Below, piece after piece: positions 18,201-53,783 of a stretch of DNA of 64,000 nt. Made by a program: the position numbers and the translations under genes. Positions within the stretch are counted from its first letter, which is position 1, and each line of letters opens with the position of its first letter. Under the pieces are notes generated by a model. The model made no database searches and had not been told where the DNA came from. It was given only the letters and a program-made list of their open reading frames with translations. Location: NCBI GenBank assembly GCA_949291515.1, contig CASEVY010000010.1:248001-312000 (forward strand). The letters run 5' to 3'. The DNA is from an uncultured bacterium (lineage in GTDB: Bacteria > Elusimicrobiota > Elusimicrobia > Elusimicrobiales > Elusimicrobiaceae).

Positions 18201-18872
18201 ATGAGGTTTAAAATAATAACGGCGGCTTTATTGTTGGGCATAATGGCGGGCTTTTCAGCCGATGTAATGGCGCAGGTTGGGGTACCGCACAGCAAAAGGG
18301 GGACTGGCAGCCTTTGCGCTTATGATAGTAGGACACACTATTATAGCTGGGACAGCGTTTTTTGCAGTCCTTACGGCGGCGATATGGAGTTTATACAGTT
18401 CTGCTATGAGGATTCAATCTCCCGCGGTTATGTGATAGATAAAGACTATACGGATGCAGGTGGATACGTAACAGCCTCTGCGGCACTGTGCGGGCGGCTT
18501 GAAGGGCTTAAGTTTTTTCTGAACAAGGGTTTTTACCTTGACGAAGTAAACAGAGATTCAATGAAGACTCCTTTGCAAGCTGCGGCGGAACAAGGCCGTT
18601 ATGAGGTTTGCAAGTACCTTTTGGATAAAGGAGCAAGCCCCGTAAAGAAATCTTACGCGATACACGAAGACGCATACTATTATGCCAAGGAATCTGGAGT
18701 AGAGAGCGTAATCAGATTGGTAGGCGACGCATGGCGGAAATGGAAAGGCTTGGCGGAAGCGAGGCATGAGGAGTATAAGAAAGAGATACAGAACCTTAAT
18801 CTTAACGATTATGAGAAGTTTAAACTGAAACATAATCTTGGCAATTTTAAAGCGGAAATATTCTTTTCTTAA
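18201..18872 (+). CDS. Secreted ankyrin-repeat protein, tandem copy 1
   Basis: A 223-aa protein with a signal peptide (about 1-24, ending ADVMAQ) and about three ankyrin-type helix pairs across residues 60-175; PLQAAAEQGRYEVCKYLLDKGA is a near-consensus repeat. A charged helical tail follows (about 180-215). Ankyrin repeats bind proteins, and the signal peptide places this one in the periplasm or outside the cell. Partner unknown. AAAGGAG precedes the ATG. The gene, its 41-bp upstream element and its terminator are duplicated just downstream. The C-terminal 13 residues differ from copy 2, where the two frames end differently. Confidence 0.85.
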   Translation: MRFKIITAALLLGIMAGFSADVMAQVGVPHSKRGTGSLCAYDSRTHYYSWDSVFCSPYGGDMEFIQFCYEDSISRGYVIDKDYTDAGGYVTASAALCGRLEGLKFFLNKGFYLDEVNRDSMKTPLQAAAEQGRYEVCKYLLDKGASPVKKSYAIHEDAYYYAKESGVESVIRLVGDAWRKWKGLAEARHEEYKKEIQNLNLNDYEKFKLKHNLGNFKAEIFFS

Positions 18873-19027: not shown

Positions 19028-19684
19028 ATGAGGTTTAAGATAATAACGGCGGCTTTATTGTTGGGTATAATGGCAGGCTTTTCAGCCGATGCAATGGCGC
19101 AGGTGGGGGTACCGCACAGCAAAAGGGGTACTGGCAGCCTTTGCGATTATGATAGCAGGACAAGATATTATTATTGGGGAGCTGTTTTTTGCAGTCCTTA
19201 CGGCGGCGATATGGAGTTTATAAAATTCTGCTATGAAGATGCTATCTCCCGCGGTTATGTAATAGATAAAGACTATACGGACGCAACTGGATATGTTACG
19301 GCGGCAGCGGCGAGGTGCGGGCGGCTTGAAGGGCTTAAGTTTTTTCTTGACAAGGGCTTTTACCTTGACGAAGTAAATAGCGATTCAATGCAGACTCCTT
19401 TGCAAGCGGCGGCGGAAAAAGGCCGTTATGAGGTTTGCAAGTACCTTTTGGAGAAAGGAGCAAGCCCCGTAAAGAAATCTTACGCGATACACGAAGACGC
19501 ATACTATTATGCCAAAGAATCCGGTGTGCCGAGCGTAATCAAATTGGTGGGCGACGCATGGCGGAAATGGAAAGGCTTGGCGGAAGCGAGGCATGAGGAG
19601 TATAAGAAAGAGATACAGAACCTTAATCTTAACGATTATGAGAAGTTTAAACTGAAACATAATCTTGATGTTTCCAGAGGATAA
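19028..19684 (+). CDS. Secreted ankyrin-repeat protein, tandem copy 2
   Basis: A 218-aa paralogue of the preceding gene with the same signal peptide (ending ADAMAQ), ankyrin repeats and charged tail. Most differences are substitutions clustered at residues 39-55 and in the repeat loops (for example RYYYWGAVF against HYYSWDSVF), while the C-terminal half is almost unchanged. Copy 2 ends ...HNLDVSRG. TAAGGAG precedes the ATG. The two proteins probably share a location but may bind different partners, since the variable positions fall on exposed parts. Function unknown. Confidence 0.85.
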   Translation: MRFKIITAALLLGIMAGFSADAMAQVGVPHSKRGTGSLCDYDSRTRYYYWGAVFCSPYGGDMEFIKFCYEDAISRGYVIDKDYTDATGYVTAAAARCGRLEGLKFFLDKGFYLDEVNSDSMQTPLQAAAEKGRYEVCKYLLEKGASPVKKSYAIHEDAYYYAKESGVPSVIKLVGDAWRKWKGLAEARHEEYKKEIQNLNLNDYEKFKLKHNLDVSRG

Positions 19685-24614: not shown

Positions 24615-25499
24615 ATGGATAAATACACCGCAATCACATTGATATTGGCATTGTTTTTCTTTTTCCTCGCCTGCTTTCTGACTTATCTGTTGATAAGGAA
24701 GCAGCTTGCTTTGCATGCGGAAAGAGTAAATATCGGCGATCTTAACAAAAGGATAAAAGCTCTGACCCGCAATTTAATGGATATGGTGCAGCAGAAAGAG
24801 GATTTGGAGCGGATAAACGATATGCGTTCTAAATTCGTATCTGTAGTGGCGCACGATTTGAAGCAGCCTCTTACGCTTTTAAACGGATATTCATCGCTCC
24901 TTAGGGAAAATATCAAAGAAGAAGATCAAAAAATACTGGACAATATCGACAAAGCCGCCTGCAATATCGAGAAGCTGACAAACGACTTGGCGGACGTATC
25001 GGCGGTGGAATACGGGCGGATAAAACTTAATTTTTCGCAATTCTCTTTTAATGACTTGATTAGCGAAATATTCAATCAGTACCGCGGCGTAGCCATGCGT
25101 AAAGATATCGATATGCATCTGATAGATTATCCCGAGGAGATAATAATAGAAGCTGACAGGTTCCGCCTGGGCCAAGTGTTTAACAATTTGCTTAGCAATG
25201 CCCTAAAGTTTACTGCGGCAGGCGGGAATGTGGAGATAAAGTATTCCCTGGAAGACAATATGGTAAAGACTTTGATAAGGGACGACGGATTAGGCATCAC
25301 GCATACCGATCGGACAAAAATATTTGACAAATTCCAGCAGTCCGATTTTATCGAGGACGATTTTAAAAAGCAAGGCTGGGGTTTGGGCTTGGCGATAGCC
25401 GATGAAATAGTAACCATTCACGGCGGCGTTATCGGGGCCGACAGCGCGGGGCGCGGAGCCGGCTCGACGTTTTGGGTAATTTTACCAGTCAAACATTAG
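24615..25499 (+). CDS. Orphan membrane sensor histidine kinase
   Basis: A 294-aa kinase with one N-terminal helix (about 4-26), a coiled-coil (about 35-70), a HisKA domain with phospho-acceptor His in VVAHDLKQPLTLLNGYSS (about 73-90) and an HATPase_c domain: N box NNLLSNALKF near 190, G1 box RDDGLGI near 222, and G2 box GWGLGLAIADEIV near 253. There is no extracytoplasmic sensor loop, so it either senses through the membrane or interacts with other sensors. No response regulator lies beside it. A terminator follows. Confidence 0.93.
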   Translation: MDKYTAITLILALFFFFLACFLTYLLIRKQLALHAERVNIGDLNKRIKALTRNLMDMVQQKEDLERINDMRSKFVSVVAHDLKQPLTLLNGYSSLLRENIKEEDQKILDNIDKAACNIEKLTNDLADVSAVEYGRIKLNFSQFSFNDLISEIFNQYRGVAMRKDIDMHLIDYPEEIIIEADRFRLGQVFNNLLSNALKFTAAGGNVEIKYSLEDNMVKTLIRDDGLGITHTDRTKIFDKFQQSDFIEDDFKKQGWGLGLAIADEIVTIHGGVIGADSAGRGAGSTFWVILPVKH

Positions 25500-41179: not shown

Positions 41180-41953
41180 ATGAAAAAAAAGAAATTTACT
41201 CAATATCTAATAATTGCTATTTTGTTTTTCTTGCCTTTTTCGTTTGCAAGTTTAGCTTTTTCCTCCTGTTCTTACGGCGGCAAAACTTTAAGCGACGGAA
41301 ACGCAATATATTCGCCCGACGGCTGTGATACCTGCGTTAAATATTGCTGCCCCAACGGAGAAATGAGCGACGAAGATTGCGCCGAAGGATCCGATATAGC
41401 CTCTTATTCGGAAGCCTGCGCGGATAAAATGAGCAAATGCAAAAGCGGCTATACCGAAGGCAGCGACGGAAGTTGTTGCTTGAATACTAGCAAGCCGAGA
41501 AAAACTACGGCTTATCTTAACTATTCCTCTTATGGATGGTATACGACAAGCGGCAAAATAAATCATTTCGCTACTTTAAAAGTTTCCGCCCCGTATTGTA
41601 AAAATTCATCTTGGTATGTTAAGGTAAACAGCTATTCTTGCACTTCGCCGTTAAGCAAAACTTCAGACGGCTGCAAAATGTGGCCTTACTGGACTTGCCA
41701 ACGTCATAACGTCGCTACGGAACACGATGGCTTGCCAATGTGTTCCGGTACGGCCTCTTCGGTAGGGGCTTTACTTGATTCATACACAAGTGCTTCTGCC
41801 GTATACGGAGCGGGAAGCACGGGGGATTGTTCTTACGAATGTCTGTACAGAGATTCAAAAAGACTGTACCAGCTTTGTGAATGTGATATGTCTTTGGAAG
41901 ATTTTGAAACAGACGTTAAATCCGAATACAGAGCAAGCGAACTTAAGTTTTAA
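41180..41953 (+). CDS. Secreted cysteine-rich protein of unknown function
   Basis: A 257-aa protein with a long signal peptide (about 1-28) and some twenty cysteines in the mature part, including SSCSYGG, DGCDTCVKYCCPNG, GSCCLN, WTCQRH, DCSYECLYR and LCECD. Such density implies disulphides, so an extracytoplasmic place. No family recognised. GAGGAG precedes the ATG. It is followed by a terminator and stands alone, behind a promoter whose spacer contains a 12-T tract. Similar Cys-rich secreted architecture is seen in the gene at 46962-48206, so the two may belong to one lineage-specific group, perhaps pseudopilin-exported or surface-exposed. Confidence 0.75.
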   Translation: MKKKKFTQYLIIAILFFLPFSFASLAFSSCSYGGKTLSDGNAIYSPDGCDTCVKYCCPNGEMSDEDCAEGSDIASYSEACADKMSKCKSGYTEGSDGSCCLNTSKPRKTTAYLNYSSYGWYTTSGKINHFATLKVSAPYCKNSSWYVKVNSYSCTSPLSKTSDGCKMWPYWTCQRHNVATEHDGLPMCSGTASSVGALLDSYTSASAVYGAGSTGDCSYECLYRDSKRLYQLCECDMSLEDFETDVKSEYRASELKF

Positions 41954-42139: not shown

Positions 42140-45100
42140 ATGGCTAAAGCAGATAAAGAAAACAATTTCATTAAAACAGTAAAAAGCATCATCGCGGGTA
42201 CGGAGAAAAAAGAGAAAACCGCTCTCGCGGCGGATACGGTATTGAAAGAAGCCGTAAAAATATTTTCCAAACTAAATCAACCTTATGCCGTCATAACCAA
42301 GGCCAATAAACTGGTATACGCGAATAATGCCTTTATCGAATTGCTGGGGACAGCGGTACTCCCTGAAAATATAGAGGATATAATAGCCAAGAACGAATAT
42401 AAAATTTTTGAACGCAAATCAGACGATACTTTCTGTTTTGAGGACAGCGCCGTTTTCGCCTCCGCGCTGTCTTTCAACGGGAAGAATTTTAACGCCAAAA
42501 TCGACATATCCTATTTGGGTGCGGGCAAGAAAGAGAAATATGCTTCTTTGAACATAAGCGAAGTTGACGATAAGGCCTACAATTTGAGAAATGTCGAGAC
42601 GGAAATTTTACGTTCCAGAAATTATCTCGAGAGTTTGTTCTCGGCATTGCCTTTCGCCTCTTTCGTCCGGGACGATAAAGGCGTCCTGATTACCGCCAAT
42701 AATTACGCCAAGGCGCTTTTGGGCGCGAATTGCGGCTTTGAAGAAACCCCTAATCAAATGCCCAAGCAGGTTTTTAAAGACGACTGCGCTTTGGATAAGG
42801 ACGTTTTTAAAACGGACCGCGCTTTGGAAGGCGCGGAAATTTCCTTCAAGGACAAAAGCGGGAAAGTTAAATTCTATTCGGTAAGCAAAATACCTCTTTG
42901 TGCGGAATCTGGCGAACGAAAACTTGTCTTGAGCGTTATTGAAGATATTACATCAAAGAAACAGCATGAGGAAAAGACCGTTCTGGCCAAAAATCTTCTT
43001 AGTATGATATTGGATTATGCTCCTTTGGCTTTTTATACCAGGGACGAGAAGGGCAATATCTCGTTTTGGAACAAAAAGACGGCGGAGATTTTCGCCGACA
43101 ACTTTACGGTGGAAGGCGAACGCGGCGTATTACACGAAAGCAAGGAACATACAAAAAGCTGCTTGGCTATGGAAAAAGAAATCGTCAAAGAAGGTAAAGT
43201 GGTATTTTGCCCTGCGCAGGAATATAACTCCAAAAGCGGCGGCAAAGTGTTTTTGGATTTGATAAAAGTACCCATACCGGAAAGTTCTTCTTCGCCCGCC
43301 TGCGTTCTTACCATCGCTCAGGACATAACGGAAAAGTATATACAGGAGCGTGAAGGAAGCAAGACTAACAATATTCTCCAGGCGATATTCAATGAGGCGC
43401 CGGTAGCCATATATGCGCGCGACGCCAGCGGTGATATAATATTCCGCAACAAAAAGACTATGGAGATATACGGCGCGGGCGGCGAACCTTCGGAAGATGC
43501 TACGGAGGAGCAAAAAGATTTCTATAAGAAGAGAGACCTCAGCGTTCTAAAGAACGGGAAAGTGCTCTATCTGCCGGAAGAAGAATATGTCGGCATAGAC
43601 GGCGGCAAACGCGTTATTCGCGCGGTAAAATCGCCGATATCGGATAATGGCGGAAAGCCTTTCCTCGTGGTTACCATAGGGGAGGATATAACCGCCGCTT
43701 ACGAACGGGAACGCGAAGTTCTGCACTATAAGAACTTCTTGCAGGATATAATAAACAATCTGCCCGTCGCGCTTTACGCAAAGAAATATACCGGCGAATA
43801 TATACTTTGGAATAAAAAATGCGGGGAGGTGTTCGGAAAGAAAGCCGAAGAAGTCATCGGGAAAACGACTCATAACGACAAGATAAACCCCGAACAGGAA
43901 GAATTTATACGTATGCAGGACCAGAAAGTTTTTGACTCCAAGCGGGAACTTGATATCCCGCAGGAACTTATATCCACGCAGGACGGCGAAATAAAGATAA
44001 TGCATACGGTAAAGACGCCGCTTTTCTTCGCGGACGGTACGCCGAATTGTCTTTTGGGCGTATCGGAAGACATAACGGCCAAGAGCAAAATGGAGCGGCA
44101 GGTTTACGAATCGCGCAGCAAATATTCGCTGTTGGTTGAAAGCTGCAAAGAAGGCATATTGATAATAGAACAGGGCAAAATATCTTTTGCCAACAAGACT
44201 TTGCTTAACTCGCTCGGATACGAAGAAGACGATGTAAAAGGAAAGAGCTTTTGCGACTTGGCTTCGGCTGGCAGCGAGGACGTCGCACGCGAATTTTACG
44301 ATAAGGTCTTTGCCGGCACCGCGGCAAGCGATTATGCTTTTATAAAGATGGACAACAAAAACAAAGACGAAGTGTTTGAGTTCGAGGTTTCCGCGGCGAT
44401 ATCAAAATATTTGGGCAAGAAAATAGTGATAATGTTCTTAAGGAATATAACCAAGGAGCGCAGTATGGAGAATAAGGCCAAAGCGAAGGACGACAGATTC
44501 CGCAGCGTTTTTGAAGGGACGAGCATTCCCCTTATCATATTACAGCACAACGGCTACATTTATGATATGAACCGTGCCGCGCGGGATATTCTCGGGTTTA
44601 CGAAAGAAGATAAGCCGTTATACGGCAGCATATTTATAAAGCCGGGCCTTCCGTTGAAAGCTCGTCGCGCGATGGCGGCCATGGAGCCTTGCGTATTTGA
44701 CGGCAAGATAAATTTCGACAGATTGAAAAAGACGCTCAGCGGCTTGAACAAAAACGGAGTTATGCCTTTGAAAGTCAGTATGACGCCCGTGAACGAGCGG
44801 ACCTTAAGCGGCGGCAAGACTGTATGCGATTATATCTTGCAGCTGACGGCAGACAAGAGTACAAAAGAGATGGTTCCAGAAGAAGGCTCCGTACTTGCGG
44901 AGGATATGCTGAGTTATCAGGAGGCGGTATTGCTTTGCTCCAGGGAAGGGCTTATACTTAAATGCAACAAGAGGGCGGAGCAGCTCTTTGGTATAAGTTT
45001 TGTCAATTTATATTCCAAGCCGTTGGCGTCGCTGTTTACGCCTCGCGACAAAGCCGCGATAGAATTGGATATGGCGGAACTGTATAATCACGGCAGCGTA

Positions 45101-46885
45101 AAAAGCAGGGATTACAAGATAAAGAAAGGCGAAAGTGCTGGCGTCGAAGTTGAAGCCAACGCTGTTCTGGCGAAAAACAATAATTTTATAATCTCGTTTA
45201 GGAATATAAGCGCCAAGAAGCAGCTTTTGGACGTCTTGGACGAAAGGAGCCAATATGCCCAAGCACTTATGCAGATTGTTGACGGTGCATTGCTTGAATG
45301 CGATATAGAAGATAAGAAACTTTCCGCATTTACGAAGGTAAACGACGCGGCTTGTTCTTTTACCGGGTATTCCATGGACGAGCTTATGAAGCTGAGTTTG
45401 TTTGACCTGCTCGTGGACAAGGAGAAGAAGGAAAGCAAAAAGGTTGACGCGTATTTGGCTTCAAAGGCGGAGTTGTTAAGAAAAGACAAACTTGTATCTT
45501 TTGAGGCGATGCTTAATATAAAGGATAGACAGAAAGCGGCTGTGGTAAGGATAAGTTCGTTTAGAAGCGGCGACAGCGAAAAGGCCGTAATAGTGATACG
45601 CGACGCCAGCAAAGAGCGTCAGCTTGCTTCGGAACTGGATTATAAGCTCAAAGAGCTAAAAGGCGTAAAGAATATTTTGCCCGGGTTGTATATCAAATTG
45701 GATTCCAAGGGTATAATACAGGAATATCAAACTGCGGAAGCGGGATACGATATAGCAGTGTTTCCGTCGGATTATTTGGGCCACCCGATGCAGGAATTTT
45801 TAAGCAGGGAAGAAGGCGATTTGCTTTTGGAGAATATAAAACAGGCGTATAAGACTGGTGTGCCCGTGCAGACGAGTTTTTCCATGCAGAGCGGCGGGGA
45901 ACCGAAGTTTTACGAGGCTTCCATATCGCGTTTGGAGGGCGAAGATAGCGTGGTAATGCTGGTTGAGAACGTCGACAGAAGAAAAGGCTTGGAGAACAAA
46001 ATCCATCATCTTTACGATTTTTCCTCTCGCAAGCAGCGCAGCTTTGTTGAGAATATGAAAGACGTTTTGGAATACGGCAAGCAGATATTCGGGGCGGAAG
46101 TGGGTTTGATAATGCACTTCAGCGGACGCAACCGCGATAAGATACTGATAAACTATGCCACGGATAATCCTTACGACATAAAGAAGGGGATAGAGACCGC
46201 GGTGGAGGAATGTTTGCGCGACGTTCAAGACGGCAAGGTGTACGCCTGCCGCGATACTTCCATTTTAAAGTGCGTGAGATGTCTGCACGTAAAGAGAGGG
46301 ATAAATTCCATTATAGCCGCGCCGTTGTACATAGCCGGCAAGGTGGAAGGCGCGATAGCGTTTGTAAGCGTAAAGAAGAACACGATGCCGCTTACCGACG
46401 AGGATAAGAGCTTTATAAGTTTTGTCGGCGGGCTTATGAGTATGGCCCTGGAAATCCGCCAAAACCAGAAAGCGGTGGACAACAGCTTGGGCGCTTTGAG
46501 GAGATTGGCTTCCAGTTTGGACGTACCCGCTGCGATAATAGACGAGAATTTCAAAATAAAAAATCTGAACAGCGTTATGCGCAATATTTGCGGGATATAC
46601 GATATTGTGGAGGCTGAAGATCAAAATATCTTTGTCAAGTTCGCTTATGACAGTTTAAAAGCTGAGGGCGACTTCAAGAGTGCGTATAAGACGTCCAAAG
46701 GCGGGGCTTTCGATTTCTTATTCGACATCAATATAGCAGACGGAAGCAAAGTAAATCTTGTGTGGCACGTGGTGGAAATCAAGGACGGCAAAGGGGCTGT
46801 CAAAGGGTTTTTGCTGGCCAGCGAAAGCGTGAACAATGTCCCGTCTTTAAAGCCTTTTTTACAGGGATATTTGTTTCATTCTTAA
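42140..46885 (+). CDS. Giant PAS-array protein with GAF domain and no recognisable output domain
   Basis: A 1581-aa soluble protein built of about eleven PAS domains in tandem. Typical starts are ILDYAPLAFYTRDEKGNISFWN, IFNEAPVAIYARDASGDI and IINNLPVALYAKKYTG (about residues 290, 415 and 540), and several end in ITxK-type linkers (SEDITAK, AQDITEK). A GAF domain (about 1310-1455) holds four cysteines in a C-x11-C-x7-C-x2-C pattern (EECLRD, YACRD, KCVRC). A last PAS (about 1470-1570) ends the protein. No HisKA, HATPase, GGDEF, EAL or PP2C motif is visible. CGGAGG seven bases upstream sets the ATG at 42140. It may signal by protein contact with a separate kinase; the orphan kinase at 24615 is one candidate (inference). 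Confidence 0.88.
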   Translation: MAKADKENNFIKTVKSIIAGTEKKEKTALAADTVLKEAVKIFSKLNQPYAVITKANKLVYANNAFIELLGTAVLPENIEDIIAKNEYKIFERKSDDTFCFEDSAVFASALSFNGKNFNAKIDISYLGAGKKEKYASLNISEVDDKAYNLRNVETEILRSRNYLESLFSALPFASFVRDDKGVLITANNYAKALLGANCGFEETPNQMPKQVFKDDCALDKDVFKTDRALEGAEISFKDKSGKVKFYSVSKIPLCAESGERKLVLSVIEDITSKKQHEEKTVLAKNLLSMILDYAPLAFYTRDEKGNISFWNKKTAEIFADNFTVEGERGVLHESKEHTKSCLAMEKEIVKEGKVVFCPAQEYNSKSGGKVFLDLIKVPIPESSSSPACVLTIAQDITEKYIQEREGSKTNNILQAIFNEAPVAIYARDASGDIIFRNKKTMEIYGAGGEPSEDATEEQKDFYKKRDLSVLKNGKVLYLPEEEYVGIDGGKRVIRAVKSPISDNGGKPFLVVTIGEDITAAYEREREVLHYKNFLQDIINNLPVALYAKKYTGEYILWNKKCGEVFGKKAEEVIGKTTHNDKINPEQEEFIRMQDQKVFDSKRELDIPQELISTQDGEIKIMHTVKTPLFFADGTPNCLLGVSEDITAKSKMERQVYESRSKYSLLVESCKEGILIIEQGKISFANKTLLNSLGYEEDDVKGKSFCDLASAGSEDVAREFYDKVFAGTAASDYAFIKMDNKNKDEVFEFEVSAAISKYLGKKIVIMFLRNITKERSMENKAKAKDDRFRSVFEGTSIPLIILQHNGYIYDMNRAARDILGFTKEDKPLYGSIFIKPGLPLKARRAMAAMEPCVFDGKINFDRLKKTLSGLNKNGVMPLKVSMTPVNERTLSGGKTVCDYILQLTADKSTKEMVPEEGSVLAEDMLSYQEAVLLCSREGLILKCNKRAEQLFGISFVNLYSKPLASLFTPRDKAAIELDMAELYNHGSVKSRDYKIKKGESAGVEVEANAVLAKNNNFIISFRNISAKKQLLDVLDERSQYAQALMQIVDGALLECDIEDKKLSAFTKVNDAACSFTGYSMDELMKLSLFDLLVDKEKKESKKVDAYLASKAELLRKDKLVSFEAMLNIKDRQKAAVVRISSFRSGDSEKAVIVIRDASKERQLASELDYKLKELKGVKNILPGLYIKLDSKGIIQEYQTAEAGYDIAVFPSDYLGHPMQEFLSREEGDLLLENIKQAYKTGVPVQTSFSMQSGGEPKFYEASISRLEGEDSVVMLVENVDRRKGLENKIHHLYDFSSRKQRSFVENMKDVLEYGKQIFGAEVGLIMHFSGRNRDKILINYATDNPYDIKKGIETAVEECLRDVQDGKVYACRDTSILKCVRCLHVKRGINSIIAAPLYIAGKVEGAIAFVSVKKNTMPLTDEDKSFISFVGGLMSMALEIRQNQKAVDNSLGALRRLASSLDVPAAIIDENFKIKNLNSVMRNICGIYDIVEAEDQNIFVKFAYDSLKAEGDFKSAYKTSKGGAFDFLFDINIADGSKVNLVWHVVEIKDGKGAVKGFLLASESVNNVPSLKPFLQGYLFHS

Positions 46886-46915: not shown

Positions 46916-46961
46916 ATCTAAAAGGGAAATAATACGTATATTATTTTAAGAGGGATTGAAT

Positions 46962-48206
46962 ATGAAGAAATTTCTTCTTATATCGCTGTGTGTTTTCTTG
47001 TGCGCGGGCGCGAAAGCTGCGGAGTATGAAATAACTACCGCATTGTCCAGCCCGTATGGAATGTTCAGTACATTTTCGGTGTTTGGGGACGCTACCGTAT
47101 GGGATTTGATTATTGGGGCCAACAGCAAGGATAACGTAACGCCTACCGGGCACACTTTGCCCATATACCGCCCAATACAGGAAACGTATTTGAATGCAAA
47201 CGACATAGTATTCGGCGGGGACTTGAATATAAACAGAGACTTGTTTTTAAGTGCGCCGAACCAGTCATACGGGAATGTTCTGGTAACCACTTACAGCAGC
47301 GATACCGTTCAGGTGCCGACGTTTTTTGATATGAATTTTTCCAATATAACGATACCTACTCTATATGCCAATATGCTTCTTACCGGCCCGCTTACGATAA
47401 CGGGAGCGCTGCAGGTAATTACGCTTAGGACCGCGATGCTTAAAATAACCAATTCTTCTACTGGCAGATCTTTCACTTTCCCGTCGGTAAGAGGAACGTC
47501 TTTTGGGGATAGGGTTTTTGCTTCCACGCCGTCCTCCCATTGCGGGAGCGACAATAAAGGGCATTATTACGGGCCTTGGGTTACTTGTTCCAGCGGGTCA
47601 TGCCCGTCAGTGAGCAACAACTGCGATAATGACGATGCCGCGCAATATACGTGCCCGGATAACTTAACGGCCAGCAAGAACTGTATTGATATGAGGCGTG
47701 TAACTTACGGGATAACTTCCGTCGATACCAGGCCATATATTTCGGACGTGAAATCTTTTTATCGCAAGTGCGTATACGCCACCGACGAAGAAAGCGGCGC
47801 GCCTAACTGCGTTTTGGAGGACTATGTCGCCGGTGAAGAGGCCTACGATTCCATAGTTGATTGTTCCGAGAGCGATTTGACAAGCTGTATATCTTTGTGT
47901 TCGCGGCAGGGCGGCTGCTCCGGGACGGCGCGTTCGTGTAAGTATAAGGAAGATCCTCCGACGCAATTCGGCTCGGATTGCGCTTTGAGCGGATGGGAGA
48001 TGGGTTCCGGATTGGAATGTAAAGACTCATATTCCAGGGTAATGTATACGGTATATACGTGTCCGGCGGGTTCGGATTATACTTCAAGGCCGGCGAGTTC
48101 CACTTTCTCGCAGTATAGGGAGGTGGCTTGTATGGGCGACAATGTGGAGAACGATAATACCTCCGACACATATTGCGACAAGGAATTTTTGGTTATAGAT
48201 TTTTAA
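46962..48206 (+). CDS. Secreted cysteine-rich protein of unknown function
   Basis: A 414-aa protein with a signal peptide (about 1-18, ending GAKAAEY). The first half (about 20-180) is Thr/Ser/Asn-rich, beta-like and almost free of Cys, with repeated short strands (NINRDLFLS, GPLTITGALQVITL) that resemble a beta-helix or tail-fibre-like region. The second half (about 180-414) has roughly twenty cysteines. GAGGGATTGA precedes the ATG at 46962. It has its own promoter and terminator. Such proteins are plausible surface or secreted products in this lineage, but I can name no family or role. Confidence 0.75.
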   Translation: MKKFLLISLCVFLCAGAKAAEYEITTALSSPYGMFSTFSVFGDATVWDLIIGANSKDNVTPTGHTLPIYRPIQETYLNANDIVFGGDLNINRDLFLSAPNQSYGNVLVTTYSSDTVQVPTFFDMNFSNITIPTLYANMLLTGPLTITGALQVITLRTAMLKITNSSTGRSFTFPSVRGTSFGDRVFASTPSSHCGSDNKGHYYGPWVTCSSGSCPSVSNNCDNDDAAQYTCPDNLTASKNCIDMRRVTYGITSVDTRPYISDVKSFYRKCVYATDEESGAPNCVLEDYVAGEEAYDSIVDCSESDLTSCISLCSRQGGCSGTARSCKYKEDPPTQFGSDCALSGWEMGSGLECKDSYSRVMYTVYTCPAGSDYTSRPASSTFSQYREVACMGDNVENDNTSDTYCDKEFLVIDF

Positions 48207-49020: not shown

Positions 49021-49038
49021 TATTTTTTTGTCTTGATT

Positions 49039-51234
49039 ATGGCCAAGAAGAAACCGCTTTTAAAAGCAGAAGCCAAAAAAGAAAGCGTTTATCCGGATAT
49101 TATAACGCGTTGGCTGGGCTTGGCCGGCATCTTTATAGCGGTGTCCTTATTTTTGTTCACGCAGGACAGCGCTCAAATCAAAATAACGCTTTTCTATATT
49201 GCGGCGATAGTTGCGCTGTGCGTTTGGGCGGGCTCATTGATAAAGGAGCGCGTCAATATATTTACGGCGCGAAACTTCGCTCTTTTGTTTCCGTTTCTGT
49301 TGTATTTCGGATACGTATTTATATCGTTTTTCTTCCACCCGTATATGACGGCAAGGACGCCGGCGCTGCTTAGATTTGCGGCGTGCGGTTTTTTGTTTTT
49401 GACTGCGGCTTTTAATTTTAATTTCAAACGGGCGGAAGATTTTTTCGGATACGTTTTAATTGCCGCGTGGTGTGTTTCCGTTTACGGGGCGGTGCAGATA
49501 TTGAATATATATCTTCTGCCCGGGATAGACGTGCTTAAGTGGACGGAGTTTTTTGGGAACAGGATTTTTTCCACGATAGCGAACCCCAACTTTTTGGCGG
49601 ACTTTTGCTTATTTTGTTTTTTTATAGCGCTTGGCCGTTTCCTTTACGAGCCTAAGAAGCGCCTTGCCGTTCTTATGGGGTTGCTTGCCGCCAATATAAT
49701 GTTTACATTAAGCAAAGGGGCGTGGCTTGCTTTTGCGGCGGGCGTATTTTTATTCGGGGCGATTTATTTCAATTTCTTTTCCGAGAAATACAAAAGCCAT
49801 AGGCTGAAGTATAATCTTCTTATTTCGGCGGTATTATTGGCGGCGGTATTGGCGGCGGGCATATTTACGGCAAAGAGAATGCAGTCGGTAAATTTCAGGC
49901 TTTCCACTTGGCGTTCGGCTTTGGAGATGACGGAAGAGAAGCCCGTTTTCGGTATGGGGAAAGGTTCTTTCCAGTTTATTTACACCGCGTATAAACGGCC
50001 GGAAATATTCTATATGGAAGGTATCCACAATGGCGAAACTCAGCACGCGGAAAATTATCCTTTGGAACAGAGTACGGAGCTTGGCCTTGTCGGATTGGGG
50101 CTTTTTCTGCTGGTGCTTTTATGGCAGATTGATGGTTCTTGGCGGAAACTTAAAGAGCTTGCCAATTCCCCCAAAACCCGCAGGGAGGGGCTGATATTGC
50201 TTTCGTGTTTTGGCGCGGCGGGGGTAATATACATACACAATATGGTGGACGTCAGCATATATTTTGTATCTACGGCGTATTTTTTGGCTTTGTTTGGCGG
50301 GATATTGTTCGCTTTGAACTTCGGGCCTTTGGAAGCAAAGCGGGTTTTGTCCGAGGATACGGCATCTGGCGGCGGCAAATTTTTTAAATTGTGTTATATT
50401 GTTTTGTCATTGCTGGTGTTGTTTATTCTATACTTGCTGTTTTGTGATTTTTATGAGGTTAGCGCGCCGGCATTGCAAGGCAAATTCAGATATTTTGTCA
50501 TTTACTGGATATGTTTTATTGCGGGGTCTTTTTATACGGCGTGGCTGTTTTTGAAGACTGCCTTTGAAAGCAAACGCGTCGGCGTATTGGCGATATATGC
50601 CGCTGCGTTAGGTTTGATATATGTAAGTTTCTTTCCGTTCAGGGCTGATTTTTATACGGCGGCGGGTGCGGGTCTTGCAGCCCGCAAGGACATATCGGCG
50701 CCGATGTATTACAACAAAGCGATAAAGCTAAATCCGTTTGCTGTGGGTTTAAATCAATTCAGCGGGATAGTATTTCAGAATTTGGGCGGCAGAGAGAAGA
50801 AAAACCTTGCTTATGCCGGCGATCCCGAAGATGGATTGTACAATGATTACGAAAGGGCTTTGCGGGCGTATAAGCGTTCACTTTCGCTGATTCCCAACGA
50901 TACGATGATACACTACAATTTGGGGGCATTGTATCACGATATGGCCAAGTACGAGGTGCAAAAGGGGAACAAGGAAAAGGCGGAGCATTATTATAAACTT
51001 TCGGAAGAATCTTTAAAGAGGTCTTTGTTGCTTGATCCCACTTACGATAATGCCTATTATCAGCTTGCCAATATAGCTTTGGAACATAACGATTATCGGC
51101 GTGCGGCGAACTGGGTAAGTCTTTATATTGAGGGGCCGGAGGAAGTATCAAATCCTCTTTATATCGCCAAGCACCGCAACGACGCCGTGGCGCAAAATCA
51201 TCTTAGGGGTATAAGAGCGGCAGGTGGAATATGA
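49039..51234 (+). CDS. O-antigen ligase/PglL-like membrane protein with TPR tail, tandem copy 1
   Basis: A 731-aa protein with about 12-14 helices (about 30-560) and a soluble TPR domain at the C-terminus (about 575-720, with AYKRSLSLIPNDTMIHYNLGALYHD-like and SLKRSLLLDPTYDNAYYQLANIAL-like repeats). Wzy_C/O-antigen-ligase signatures are STIANPNFL, LSKGAWLAFAAG and a long periplasmic loop ending QHAENYPLEQSTELGLVG. Such enzymes transfer lipid-linked glycans to LPS core or to proteins. The ATG at 49039 has a weak ribosome site, only 18 bases after tRNA-Thr. Its stop overlaps copy 2 by four bases (ATGA). Closeness to the pilus operon suggests pilin O-glycosylation (inference). Confidence 0.82.
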   Translation: MAKKKPLLKAEAKKESVYPDIITRWLGLAGIFIAVSLFLFTQDSAQIKITLFYIAAIVALCVWAGSLIKERVNIFTARNFALLFPFLLYFGYVFISFFFHPYMTARTPALLRFAACGFLFLTAAFNFNFKRAEDFFGYVLIAAWCVSVYGAVQILNIYLLPGIDVLKWTEFFGNRIFSTIANPNFLADFCLFCFFIALGRFLYEPKKRLAVLMGLLAANIMFTLSKGAWLAFAAGVFLFGAIYFNFFSEKYKSHRLKYNLLISAVLLAAVLAAGIFTAKRMQSVNFRLSTWRSALEMTEEKPVFGMGKGSFQFIYTAYKRPEIFYMEGIHNGETQHAENYPLEQSTELGLVGLGLFLLVLLWQIDGSWRKLKELANSPKTRREGLILLSCFGAAGVIYIHNMVDVSIYFVSTAYFLALFGGILFALNFGPLEAKRVLSEDTASGGGKFFKLCYIVLSLLVLFILYLLFCDFYEVSAPALQGKFRYFVIYWICFIAGSFYTAWLFLKTAFESKRVGVLAIYAAALGLIYVSFFPFRADFYTAAGAGLAARKDISAPMYYNKAIKLNPFAVGLNQFSGIVFQNLGGREKKNLAYAGDPEDGLYNDYERALRAYKRSLSLIPNDTMIHYNLGALYHDMAKYEVQKGNKEKAEHYYKLSEESLKRSLLLDPTYDNAYYQLANIALEHNDYRRAANWVSLYIEGPEEVSNPLYIAKHRNDAVAQNHLRGIRAAGGI

Positions 51235-53783
51235 AAGAGAAAGCATTAAATTTATTGACGCAGGCGCGCAAACTTTTTTTGGCGGGGATGGTTTTTATGG
51301 CTCCGCTTGTCTTTTTTACCGATTTGACGAAAAATCCGTATATAGCGCAGGATTTGCTTTTGGCCTTACTGATGAGCGGCTTTTTGGTTTGTTGGGCTGG
51401 CGAAGCGTTTATCAAGCGTGAGATTAGACTTTTTTACGGTTTGGCGGATTTGTTTATGCTATTGTTTGCGGCGGTGAGTTTGGCGTCTTTGTTTTACAAC
51501 TTGGCTGTAGGCGGGAAATTTCTGGCTTTGATAGGGGACTTTTCGCAGAAGGGCGACGTATTCGTCTTTTCTTTTGTGGGCGGCTGGTTTTTGGCCAAAT
51601 ATGCCGGTTCTTGGAAATGGGAGAAATTCCGCGGAGAATTTTACTTTAATTTGGTTTTATGGTGTTTTGCGTGGTTTTTGTTCAATTTGTTTTCGGGTAT
51701 ATTTTTTTGGATATACGCGGCTTTTATGTGGAGTTGGGCGGGGTATGTCTGTCTGAAACGTTTGGATAAAGTTACGCCTTTTGCCCTGCTTGACGTTTTT
51801 ATTGCGGTTTGCGCGATATGCGGTTTTTACGGGATACTTCAAAATGCGGGGCTTGAGATGATATGGCGGATAAATATCAATTACGAATTCGGCTCGCGCG
51901 CGGTGTCGACGTTTGGTAATCCGAACTTTTTGTCCTCTTATCTGATAATATTTTTGCCTTTCGTTTTTTTAAGATATGTGAAAGCCAAAAGCGGAGGGGA
52001 GAAATTTACATTCTTTGTAATGCTTATGGTATTCTGCGCGTATTTGGCGATAAGTATGACGCGTTCTTCCTGGCTGGGTATAGCGGGTGCGGGCGTCTTG
52101 CTTTTGTTATTTAAAGATTTTAGGGGGCTATTGTTAAAGAACAAGACGCGTTGCGCGGTTATAATAGCAGTTTGCTTTGCGGTATTCTTTTTATGGCCTT
52201 CTGGGCAGGAGGGTGATTATTCTCCCGCGGCGGCGCAAAGGATAGCGGAACTTGACGATTTGAGCGAGGCTTCGTCATTGGGGCTTGGTGCGTCGGCCGA
52301 AAAACTTAATGCGGCCTACCACCAAAGATTAATGATGTGGGCGTGCGGGCTTGAGATGTTTAAAGAGTCGCCTTTGCTTGGCAAAGGTTTGACTTCATTC
52401 CAGATGAATTACGGTCTTTGCCAAGGCGGATTAATGTTTAAAAATCCGGCGCTTGGACAGCTAAAGACTCAAGCCAACGAGGCGCACAACCAGTTTGTTC
52501 AAGTGCTTGCGGAAAGCGGATTATTGGGAATTATCTCGTTTATTTGTCTTTTGGCGTTTGCTTTTTGGGGTATTTTGAAAGCCGTGTGTGCGGAAAAGAG
52601 TGAGGATTTGCGTCTTACGTATTTATGTCTTTTTGCGGGTTTGGCGGCGTTTATTTTGGATAATACCCTTAACATAACTTTCAGGGCGGTAATAACGGCG
52701 TTTGCGTTTTGGTTTGCGCTTGGTATGTTAAACAATCTTTGCTGCGTGGAAAGGACGCGGAAAGTAGGAATATTGCCGGCTTGGTTAATACTTGTTTTGA
52801 GCATAATATTGGCGATATTGCTTGCGGCGTGGCAGGCATTGTATTTTAAAGCAGAGATAACGGCCCTAAAAGGATACAAGGCTTTTGCGAAGGGTGAATA
52901 TTCTGAGGCGGAGGTATTTTTGAAAGAGGCCGACGCCAATGCCGCGATAAGGGCGGACGCGGCGTTCAGCGTGGTAAACGCTTTGATAGAAGAGCGGAAG
53001 TATCAGGAGGCTTTGGAATACGCTTTAAGAGGAATAAAGAAATATCCCGGATATTATGAATTTTATCTTAGGGCGGCGGGCGTAAAGAGCGGATTGGGCG
53101 ACAATATCGGCGCGGCGGAATATTTAAAAGAGGCTTTGGAATTGTATCCCAACAATTTGGCGGCGGCGCAGGCGTGGTCGAAGTTTATAGCGGCGCTGCC
53201 GGATTTGCGTACGTCTGATAATGCGGGGAAGGCGGAAGGCCTTTTAAGAATATTCCCTTACGATACCGATATCAGGCTTGCCTATTTGCTGTCGTCTTTT
53301 GACAGCGGGGAATATGAAAGAGCGTGCGTTAAGAGCGCCGAATTTTTGGCGGAAGATATTTTTAATCCCGACTATTATGAAATTGTAAAGGAATGCGCGG
53401 ATAAAGGTTTTGGCAATAAAGAACTTACGGAAAAAGCCGATTTGTTCAAAAAGGCAAGGGGCAGAATAAAAGCGGAAAAATACGGCACGTCTTTGGAAAA
53501 GGAAACGGAGAAGTTTTACTCTCGATATCCGCAGGACGCCAATGCGGGTTTATTATTGGCGGAAGTCAAATACAACAGGGGGAAGTATAGGGAAGCCGTA
53601 AACATTTTGAGGCCTCATTACGAGGCGCACAGATATCAGAAACCGATAGCCTTTGCGCTTGCGTCTGCGTATTTAAAGGCAGGCGAGAAAGATAAAGCCA
53701 AGGACGTATTGGAAGGCATTTTGACCTATGACTCCCACGATGAACAAGCCTTGCTCAGATTGAAAAGTATGGGCGGCAAATAA
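51231..53783 (+). CDS. O-antigen ligase/PglL-like membrane protein with TPR tail, tandem copy 2
   Basis: An 850-aa protein with about 12-13 helices (about 20-540) and a longer C-terminal TPR array (about 550-845) ending in repeats such as YLKAGEKDKAKDVLEGIL. Shared ligase landmarks are STFGNPNFLSSYL, MTRSSWLGIAGAGVLLL and EAHNQFVQVLAESGLLG, the last being the canonical H-N-x-x-L-Q-type segment. It follows copy 1 with a four-base overlap and AGGTGGA in the end of copy 1 as ribosome site. Two adjacent ligases suggest a polymerase/ligase division of labour or two acceptors. No Wzx or sugar synthesis genes are nearby. A pilus-operon promoter follows its stop. Confidence 0.82.
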   Translation: MKEKALNLLTQARKLFLAGMVFMAPLVFFTDLTKNPYIAQDLLLALLMSGFLVCWAGEAFIKREIRLFYGLADLFMLLFAAVSLASLFYNLAVGGKFLALIGDFSQKGDVFVFSFVGGWFLAKYAGSWKWEKFRGEFYFNLVLWCFAWFLFNLFSGIFFWIYAAFMWSWAGYVCLKRLDKVTPFALLDVFIAVCAICGFYGILQNAGLEMIWRININYEFGSRAVSTFGNPNFLSSYLIIFLPFVFLRYVKAKSGGEKFTFFVMLMVFCAYLAISMTRSSWLGIAGAGVLLLLFKDFRGLLLKNKTRCAVIIAVCFAVFFLWPSGQEGDYSPAAAQRIAELDDLSEASSLGLGASAEKLNAAYHQRLMMWACGLEMFKESPLLGKGLTSFQMNYGLCQGGLMFKNPALGQLKTQANEAHNQFVQVLAESGLLGIISFICLLAFAFWGILKAVCAEKSEDLRLTYLCLFAGLAAFILDNTLNITFRAVITAFAFWFALGMLNNLCCVERTRKVGILPAWLILVLSIILAILLAAWQALYFKAEITALKGYKAFAKGEYSEAEVFLKEADANAAIRADAAFSVVNALIEERKYQEALEYALRGIKKYPGYYEFYLRAAGVKSGLGDNIGAAEYLKEALELYPNNLAAAQAWSKFIAALPDLRTSDNAGKAEGLLRIFPYDTDIRLAYLLSSFDSGEYERACVKSAEFLAEDIFNPDYYEIVKECADKGFGNKELTEKADLFKKARGRIKAEKYGTSLEKETEKFYSRYPQDANAGLLLAEVKYNRGKYREAVNILRPHYEAHRYQKPIAFALASAYLKAGEKDKAKDVLEGILTYDSHDEQALLRLKSMGGK

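What the first reader, a model, noticed from the sequence alone, without database searches (positions are those of the whole stretch)
42140..46885. Eleven-PAS array with no output domain and a four-Cys GAF domain
The protein has sensory modules only. The GAF domain carries C-x11-C-x7-C-x2-C, unusual for GAF and suited to a metal or iron-sulphur site, so redox or oxygen could be sensed. Output must come from a partner; the window has an orphan histidine kinase with almost no sensor part (24615-25499).
Basis: partly seen in the sequence, partly recalled or inferred. Interest (0 to 1): 0.55.

Follow-up and report, generated by a model that had tools for sequence, protein, structure and literature searches.

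The report
Output-less eleven-PAS sensor with kinase elsewhere
Gut Elusimicrobia carry one giant protein made only of sensing domains, and a kinase elsewhere in their genome is missing exactly such a sensing part, which suggests that sensor and kinase work as two separate proteins.

Summary
In detail: window 42140-46885 (+) encodes a 1,581-aa soluble protein of eleven PAS modules and one GAF domain, and neither it nor 26 orthologues carries a recognisable output domain. It is single-copy and near-universal in one Elusimicrobiota family (shown in 78 of 90 genomes; absent from G019 and G021; 10 not shown).

The four-Cys claim fails as written: the second Cys is in 6 of 74 GAF domains. What is conserved is C-x19-C-x2/3-C-x-H, in 69 of 74: a three-Cys/one-His candidate metal or Fe-S site.

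The window's orphan kinase (24615-25499) is a possible partner. It lies 114 bp upstream of the array in one relative, but is absent from 5 of 49 near-complete array genomes. A better candidate lies outside the window: a soluble, sensorless 252-aa kinase (HK-S). It is short in 75 array genomes; in both array-less family genomes and eight outgroup genomes read, its orthologue is a 520-539-aa kinase with an N-terminal GAF-PAS sensor. Where HK-S is cleanly gone (G020), the array's GAF has lost its Cys/His site. I read the array as a trans-acting sensory hub for sensorless kinases. Interaction and metal binding are inferred, not shown.

The parts
42140..46885 (+). PAS-array gene, 1581 aa: 10 PAS, GAF, PAS; no output domain
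42260..42391 (+). PAS1 (residues 41-84 matched)
   Evidence: PAS_8 E 2.9e-4
42626..42961 (+). PAS2 (163-274)
   Evidence: PAS_9 E 1.1e-6
43019..43336 (+). PAS3 (294-399), weakest
   Evidence: PAS_4 E 0.009, PAS E 0.0057
43388..43702 (+). PAS4 (417-521)
   Evidence: PAS_4 E 1.2e-5
43736..44074 (+). PAS5 (533-645): most conserved module of the protein
   Evidence: best stretch; 51-61% identity to other genera for residues 520-660 against 28-31% for the whole protein
44150..44455 (+). PAS6 (671-772)
   Evidence: PAS_9 E 4.9e-8
44495..44791 (+). PAS7 (786-884)
   Evidence: PAS_8 E 7.6e-5
44921..45211 (+). PAS8 (928-1024)
   Evidence: PAS_9 E 1.6e-5
45329..45604 (+). PAS9 (1064-1155)
   Evidence: PAS_9 E 6.7e-6
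45701..45955 (+). PAS10 (1188-1272)
   Evidence: PAS_4 E 2e-5
46052..46453 (+). GAF domain (1305-1438)
   Evidence: GAF_2 E 1.4e-4, GAF E 0.0026; profile A4
46211..46288 (+). C1358-x19-C1378-x2-C1381-x-H1383, candidate metal or Fe-S site (C1370 inside it is not conserved)
46496..46816 (+). PAS11 (1453-1559), after the GAF, at the C-terminus
   Evidence: PAS E 3.4e-4
24615..25499 (+). Sensorless orphan histidine kinase P0002 (one TM, HisKA, HATPase_c): secondary partner candidate
   Evidence: next to the array in G017

Best explanation
The protein is a soluble, output-less sensory hub. It reads one or more cytoplasmic signals through its PAS and GAF modules and acts in trans on sensorless histidine kinases. 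The likeliest kinase is HK-S (252 aa, G000:C10:72767-73522, outside the window), whose ancestor carried its own GAF-PAS sensor. The window's membrane-anchored kinase at 24615-25499 may be a second client. The conserved three-Cys/one-His site of the GAF probably holds a metal or Fe-S centre that reports redox or oxygen state, and PAS5 is probably the principal signal- or partner-binding module. Shown: the architecture, conservation, lack of a recognisable output domain, the conserved site, and the kinase's lack of the sensor that its orthologues have. Inferred: physical interaction, cofactor, signal, and the response regulators downstream.
For: No output domain in 27 of 27 members scanned, and full-length orthologues end just after the last PAS. 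Long conservation as one gene: shown in 78 of 90 family genomes (tally). HK-S is short (open frame 241-288 aa) in 75 of 78 array genomes; the other three are two absences and one contig-edge piece. It is 538-539 aa in the two array-less family genomes, G019 and G021. The long form has an N-terminal sensor: for L209, GAF E 1.6e-22, PAS_9 E 0.0017, HisKA and HATPase_c; for L215, GAF, HisKA and HATPase_c, with no PAS match listed at E up to 0.01. Orthology of long and short forms rests on the shared upstream gene (profile comparison E 3.8e-32) and a kinase tree in which short and long are the two sides of one branch, 100/99. In G020 HK-S is cleanly missing between its usual neighbours, and in the same genome the array is short (1,196 aa) and its GAF has lost all four site residues. 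No array genome lacks both sensorless kinases. A small output-less GAF protein acting on a kinase in trans is known: NreA on NreB (PMC8139620, passages read).
Against: The gain of the array and the loss of the kinase's sensor map to one branch, so they count as one event, not many. The array's GAF is not closest in sequence to the long kinases' GAF: with the GAF profile, seven control GAF sequences outscore every one of the ten long kinases (the controls come from the best matches), so the array did not visibly take over that very domain. The array and HK-S are not neighbours in the own genome. G020 keeps a shortened array without HK-S. There is no interaction or structural evidence; both structure predictions failed (pLDDT 33.8 and 34.9).
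Confidence: 0.42

Rival explanations
1. The partner is the window's own orphan kinase P0002 (24615-25499); HK-S has lost its sensor for unrelated reasons.
For: Sensorless; no response regulator beside it; in G017 it lies directly upstream of the array, same strand, 114 bp apart; in G000, G001 and G011 it lies about 15-17 kb away in the same orientation; like the array it is missing at E 1e-45 from G019 and G021; present in G020, which keeps a shortened array without HK-S.
Against: Absent from 11 of 78 array genomes, 5 of them at least 90% complete (G002, G010, G014, G099, G163), though the array's GAF site is intact in all five. In genus g6 the array, not the kinase, sits by the folate genes, so the G017 adjacency looks derived. 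Its stable neighbours in the family are RsmI and Sua5 genes.
Confidence: 0.2
2. The array does not act on a kinase: it is a scaffold or binds other effectors directly (an orphan CheY-like regulator, a transcription factor, an enzyme).
For: Three orphan CheY-like regulators exist in the genome; no single kinase co-occurs without exception; the PAS5 core is conserved even in G020, where HK-S is gone.
Against: The switch of HK-S from sensor-bearing to bare coincides with the array, and array degeneration coincides with HK-S loss in G020. The one CheY-like regulator tested is also found in array-less relatives such as G019 and outgroup genomes.
Confidence: 0.25
3. The GAF Cys/His residues form a structural zinc site or a redox disulphide, not an Fe-S or sensing iron site. 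(This concerns the cofactor only and can hold together with the best explanation.)
For: C-x2-C-x-H pairs are common in zinc sites (recalled); the three g2 GAFs keep Cys residues at changed spacing; no solved GAF with this motif was found (best chain 4g3v, E 1.5e-4, aligned only outside the motif).
Against: None decisive; a purely structural site would not be expected to be lost together with the kinase in G020.
Confidence: 0.35
4. The gene is a decaying sensor kinase that has lost its kinase half.
For: No output domain.
Against: Long frames without stops in nearly all orthologues and strong family-wide conservation of PAS5.
Confidence: 0.03

Closest known systems
NreA/NreB (staphylococcal nitrate/oxygen system; PMC8139620, passages read)
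   Same: An output-less sensory protein (GAF) that acts on a separate histidine kinase.
   Different: NreA is described as a nitrate-binding GAF protein and NreB keeps its own [4Fe-4S] PAS sensor. Here the sensor has 12 modules and the candidate kinases have none.
AirS [2Fe-2S] sensor kinase (PMC4601167, passages read)
   Same: Candidate Fe-S site made of Cys residues in the sensory part, redox/oxygen reading proposed.
   Different: The review gives four Cys spaced Cys-X7-Cys-X-Cys-X17-Cys in a protein that is itself a kinase. Here three Cys and one His are conserved and there is no kinase in the chain.
GAF-PAS histidine kinases of the outgroup (e.g. L209, 520 aa)
   Same: Same module types; the array's C-terminus has the same GAF-PAS order, and profiles align over 183 columns.
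   Different: There the modules are in the kinase chain. The array has ten further PAS modules and stops after the last PAS.
Three-Cys/one-His [2Fe-2S] proteins (NEET family; titles and abstract starts seen in the listing)
   Same: Ligand set of three Cys and one His.
   Different: Different fold and spacing (recalled); no sequence relation was tested.

Membership tests
PAS (S-box) multi-domain sensor proteins | Several PAS domains by profile | tested here: met
Sensor histidine kinase | HisKA and HATPase_c in the same chain | tested here: not met
   None in the window protein nor in 27 of 27 members scanned
AirS-type [2Fe-2S] sensor kinase | Four conserved Cys, Cys-X7-Cys-X-Cys-X17-Cys (from the review) | tested here: not met
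   Three Cys and one His, C-x19-C-x2/3-C-x-H, in 69 of 74
AirS-type [2Fe-2S] sensor kinase | Bound [2Fe-2S] cluster | not testable with these tools
   Needs purified protein
NreA-like trans-acting sensory protein | Sensory domains without output in the chain | tested here: met
NreA-like trans-acting sensory protein | Single small GAF domain (recalled) | tested here: not met
   Eleven PAS and one GAF
NreA-like trans-acting sensory protein | Encoded next to its kinase | tested here: inconclusive
   Only in G017, with P0002; not seen beside HK-S in the loci read
NreA-like trans-acting sensory protein | Direct binding to the kinase | not testable with these tools
   Structure models of the halves failed
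Three-Cys/one-His metal or Fe-S sensor | Conserved ligand set | tested here: met
   69 of 74 GAFs; outside the family the six best-matching loci lack the motif
Three-Cys/one-His metal or Fe-S sensor | Bound metal or cluster | not testable with these tools
   Needs purified protein

The most novel reading that the evidence does not exclude
A whole bacterial family replaced the built-in GAF-PAS sensor of a histidine kinase by a single giant shared hub: eleven PAS modules and an Fe-S (three-Cys/one-His) GAF in one soluble protein that sets the activity of two sensorless kinases (HK-S in the cytosol, P0002 at the membrane). One integrated reading would then be sent to two outputs.
Probability: 0.22. 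Interest if true: 0.72.

Novelty: new variant of a known kind. Interest (0 to 1): 0.5.

Why it matters
If true, signal reception and kinase output have been split into separate proteins across a family of small-genome gut bacteria, and many inputs would be pooled in one protein for a handful of kinases. This gives named partners to test, and a new GAF site (three Cys, one His) to look for as an oxygen or redox sensor in gut anaerobes. It would also warn annotators that a 'sensorless' kinase and an 'effector-less' PAS protein in one genome may be two halves of one system.

Tried and rejected
AlphaFold2 of residues 781-1581 and 1-792 with three-row alignments (window plus L032, L033) gave mean pLDDT 33.8 and 34.9; no fold search was made on such models, so the fold of the GAF and a hidden effector fold are untested.

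I tested whether the array's C-terminal GAF-PAS is the very module lost by HK-S. Profiles align colinearly over 183 columns (prob. 84.7, E 6.7e-6), but other GAF proteins of the phylum match the array better (the control rows come from the best matches, so they are a biased set). Direct transfer of the domain is therefore not supported; functional replacement remains.

Conserved gene neighbours as partners: downstream of the array a secreted Cys-rich protein (46956-48206) recurs in 8 of the 33 stretches compared; in genus g6 a different gene and the folate cluster often adjoin it. No neighbour is shared by all. A decaying gene was rejected.

A resemblance of C1358/C1378 to the two chromophore-binding Cys of some cyanobacteriochrome GAFs was noticed from memory only and not pursued. 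Not tested: whether such arrays exist outside Elusimicrobiota. The single genome-contig scan used patterns from this protein and found only two close relatives.

Literature: searches. None of the papers listed was about this protein, as far as titles and abstract starts show; subscription papers, including the E. minutum genome paper, are not held.

Full report
WHAT IS THERE. The ORF at 42140-46885 (+) encodes 1,581 aa. Pfam and NCBIfam find PAS domains (nine direct stretches) and a weak GAF at 1305-1438, and nothing else that is credible. Scanned one by one, the ten segments other than PAS5 all give a PAS-clan hit; with PAS5 the order is PAS1-PAS10, GAF, PAS11. The protein has no transmembrane stretch by hydropathy. 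The nearest named relatives are 'uncultured Elusimicrobiales' MAGs. G018, a single contig of 1,643,562 bp, has the size I recall for Elusimicrobium minutum Pei191; this label is from memory.

DISTRIBUTION. In the own genome it is the only such protein (one further weak antisense match). Of the 36 family-f1 genomes covered (G000 to G035), 34 give array matches, some only as contig-edge pieces (G008, G012, G016). G019 (genus g3) and G021 (g5) give only generic PAS hits (E 2.3e-9 and 6.0e-10). With the GAF profile A4, 73 family genomes match among 294 genomes drawn from the phylum. Putting together, the array is shown in 78 of the 90 family genomes held, absent in 2, and not shown in 10, of which two (G242, G244) were searched without a GAF match and eight were never searched for the array.

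OUTPUT. Of 27 members scanned against Pfam, none carries a kinase, cyclase, phosphodiesterase, DNA-binding or ATPase domain at E up to 0.01 apart from isolated weak names (ATP-grasp_4, SpoVT_C; 1 of 27 each). Full-length orthologues end just after the last PAS. Five partial orthologues (G003, G008, G009, G012, G015) and the frame-broken one of G034 were left out.

CONSERVATION WITHIN THE PROTEIN. PAS5 (residues 520-660) keeps 51-61% identity to other genera, whereas the whole protein has 28-31%. Array length varies from 1,196 aa (G020) to 1,836 aa (G031) among full-length copies.

THE CYSTEINES. C1358, C1378, C1381 and H1383 (C-x19-C-x2/3-C-x-H) occur together in 26 of 30 and 43 of 44, that is 69 of 74. 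Exceptions: three genus-g2 GAFs (G018, G023, G025), in which C1381 is replaced and the His position is Cys; G157; and G020, in which all are gone. GAFs from six loci outside the family lack the motif. The best solved relative, 4g3v (E 1.5e-4), aligns only outside the motif.

KINASES OF THE GENOME. Eight HATPase_c and six receiver domains were found. Reading the loci, two kinases have no sensor: P0002 in the window (one TM helix, HisKA, HATPase) and HK-S (252 aa, soluble, HisKA and HATPase) at G000:C10:72767-73522. Three receiver proteins are stand-alone CheY-like.

HK-S. Among 90 family genomes, HK-S is found in 87. The open frame is 241-288 aa in all except the two contig-edge pieces (G003, G300) and G019 and G021, where it is 539 and 538 aa. 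In outgroup family f2 the matches have open frames of 521 aa or more; eight of those loci were read into proteins of 520-521 aa. The long form carries an N-terminal GAF and PAS region before HisKA (the PAS match is weak in L209, E 0.0017, and not listed in L215). Long and short forms share the gene upstream, an exported protein whose profiles match at E 3.8e-32. On a kinase-core tree, 31 short and 10 long sequences are the two sides of one branch with 100/99 support (one short sequence, L196, was dropped because its motif was not found; the tree warns of long branches). So the kinase most simply lost its sensor once, on the branch where the array is first seen.

A SECOND COINCIDENCE. In G020 (92% complete) HK-S is not found (best E 4.4e-16, to other kinases). 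The locus is intact on both sides: the upstream gene and the downstream coiled-coil gene are now adjacent. The same genome has the shortest full-length array and a GAF without the Cys/His site. The other array genome without HK-S, G025, is only 66% complete.

P0002. It is present at E up to 1e-45 in 73 of 90 family genomes; among the 78 array genomes it is absent from 11, of which five are at least 90% complete (G002, G010, G014, G099, G163; 49 array genomes are that complete). In G017 it is directly upstream of the array on the same strand, 114 bp apart, while its other neighbours stay RsmI and Sua5. In the window the same order is interrupted by about 16.6 kb with the folate genes. In genus g6 the array often adjoins the folate genes without the kinase, so the G017 adjacency is probably derived. 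No array genome lacks both HK-S and P0002.

MECHANISM. I infer that the array reads signals and sets the activity of HK-S in trans, and perhaps also of P0002. NreA acting on NreB is a documented precedent for an output-less sensory protein inhibiting a kinase (PMC8139620, passages read). The signal may be redox or oxygen through the Cys/His site; this is not shown. The link to HK-S rests on two evolutionary coincidences, of which the first is a single event. The array's GAF is not especially close to the GAF lost by HK-S. These limit confidence to about 0.42.

COMPARISON. It works like a trans-acting sensory subunit, but is not a member of the AirS type (four Cys and kinase not met) or of the NreA type (single GAF not met). 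I rate it a new variant of a known kind.

Noticed in passing
window 18201-18872 and 19028-19684: Two tandem, nearly identical small secreted-looking proteins, apparently a recent duplication.
   Followed up: no
window 41180-41953 and 46956-48206: Two exported-looking Cys-rich proteins of no Pfam family flank the array gene; the downstream one recurs beside the array in genus g1.
   Followed up: partly
window 49033-53783: Two adjacent O-antigen-ligase-like (Wzy_C) proteins with C-terminal TPR repeats, overlapping by 4 bases.
   Followed up: no
L255 7523-8023 (own genome, just after HK-S): A 166-aa coiled-coil-like protein follows HK-S, with an AI-2E-type permease next, and both stay in place in G020 after HK-S is lost; the small protein may be part of the HK-S system.
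   Followed up: partly
L046, L047, L052, L055 and other genus-g6 loci: Genus g6 arrays are longer (up to 1,836 aa) and give several overlapping matches to residues 134-579, suggesting added PAS3/PAS4-like repeats.
   Followed up: no
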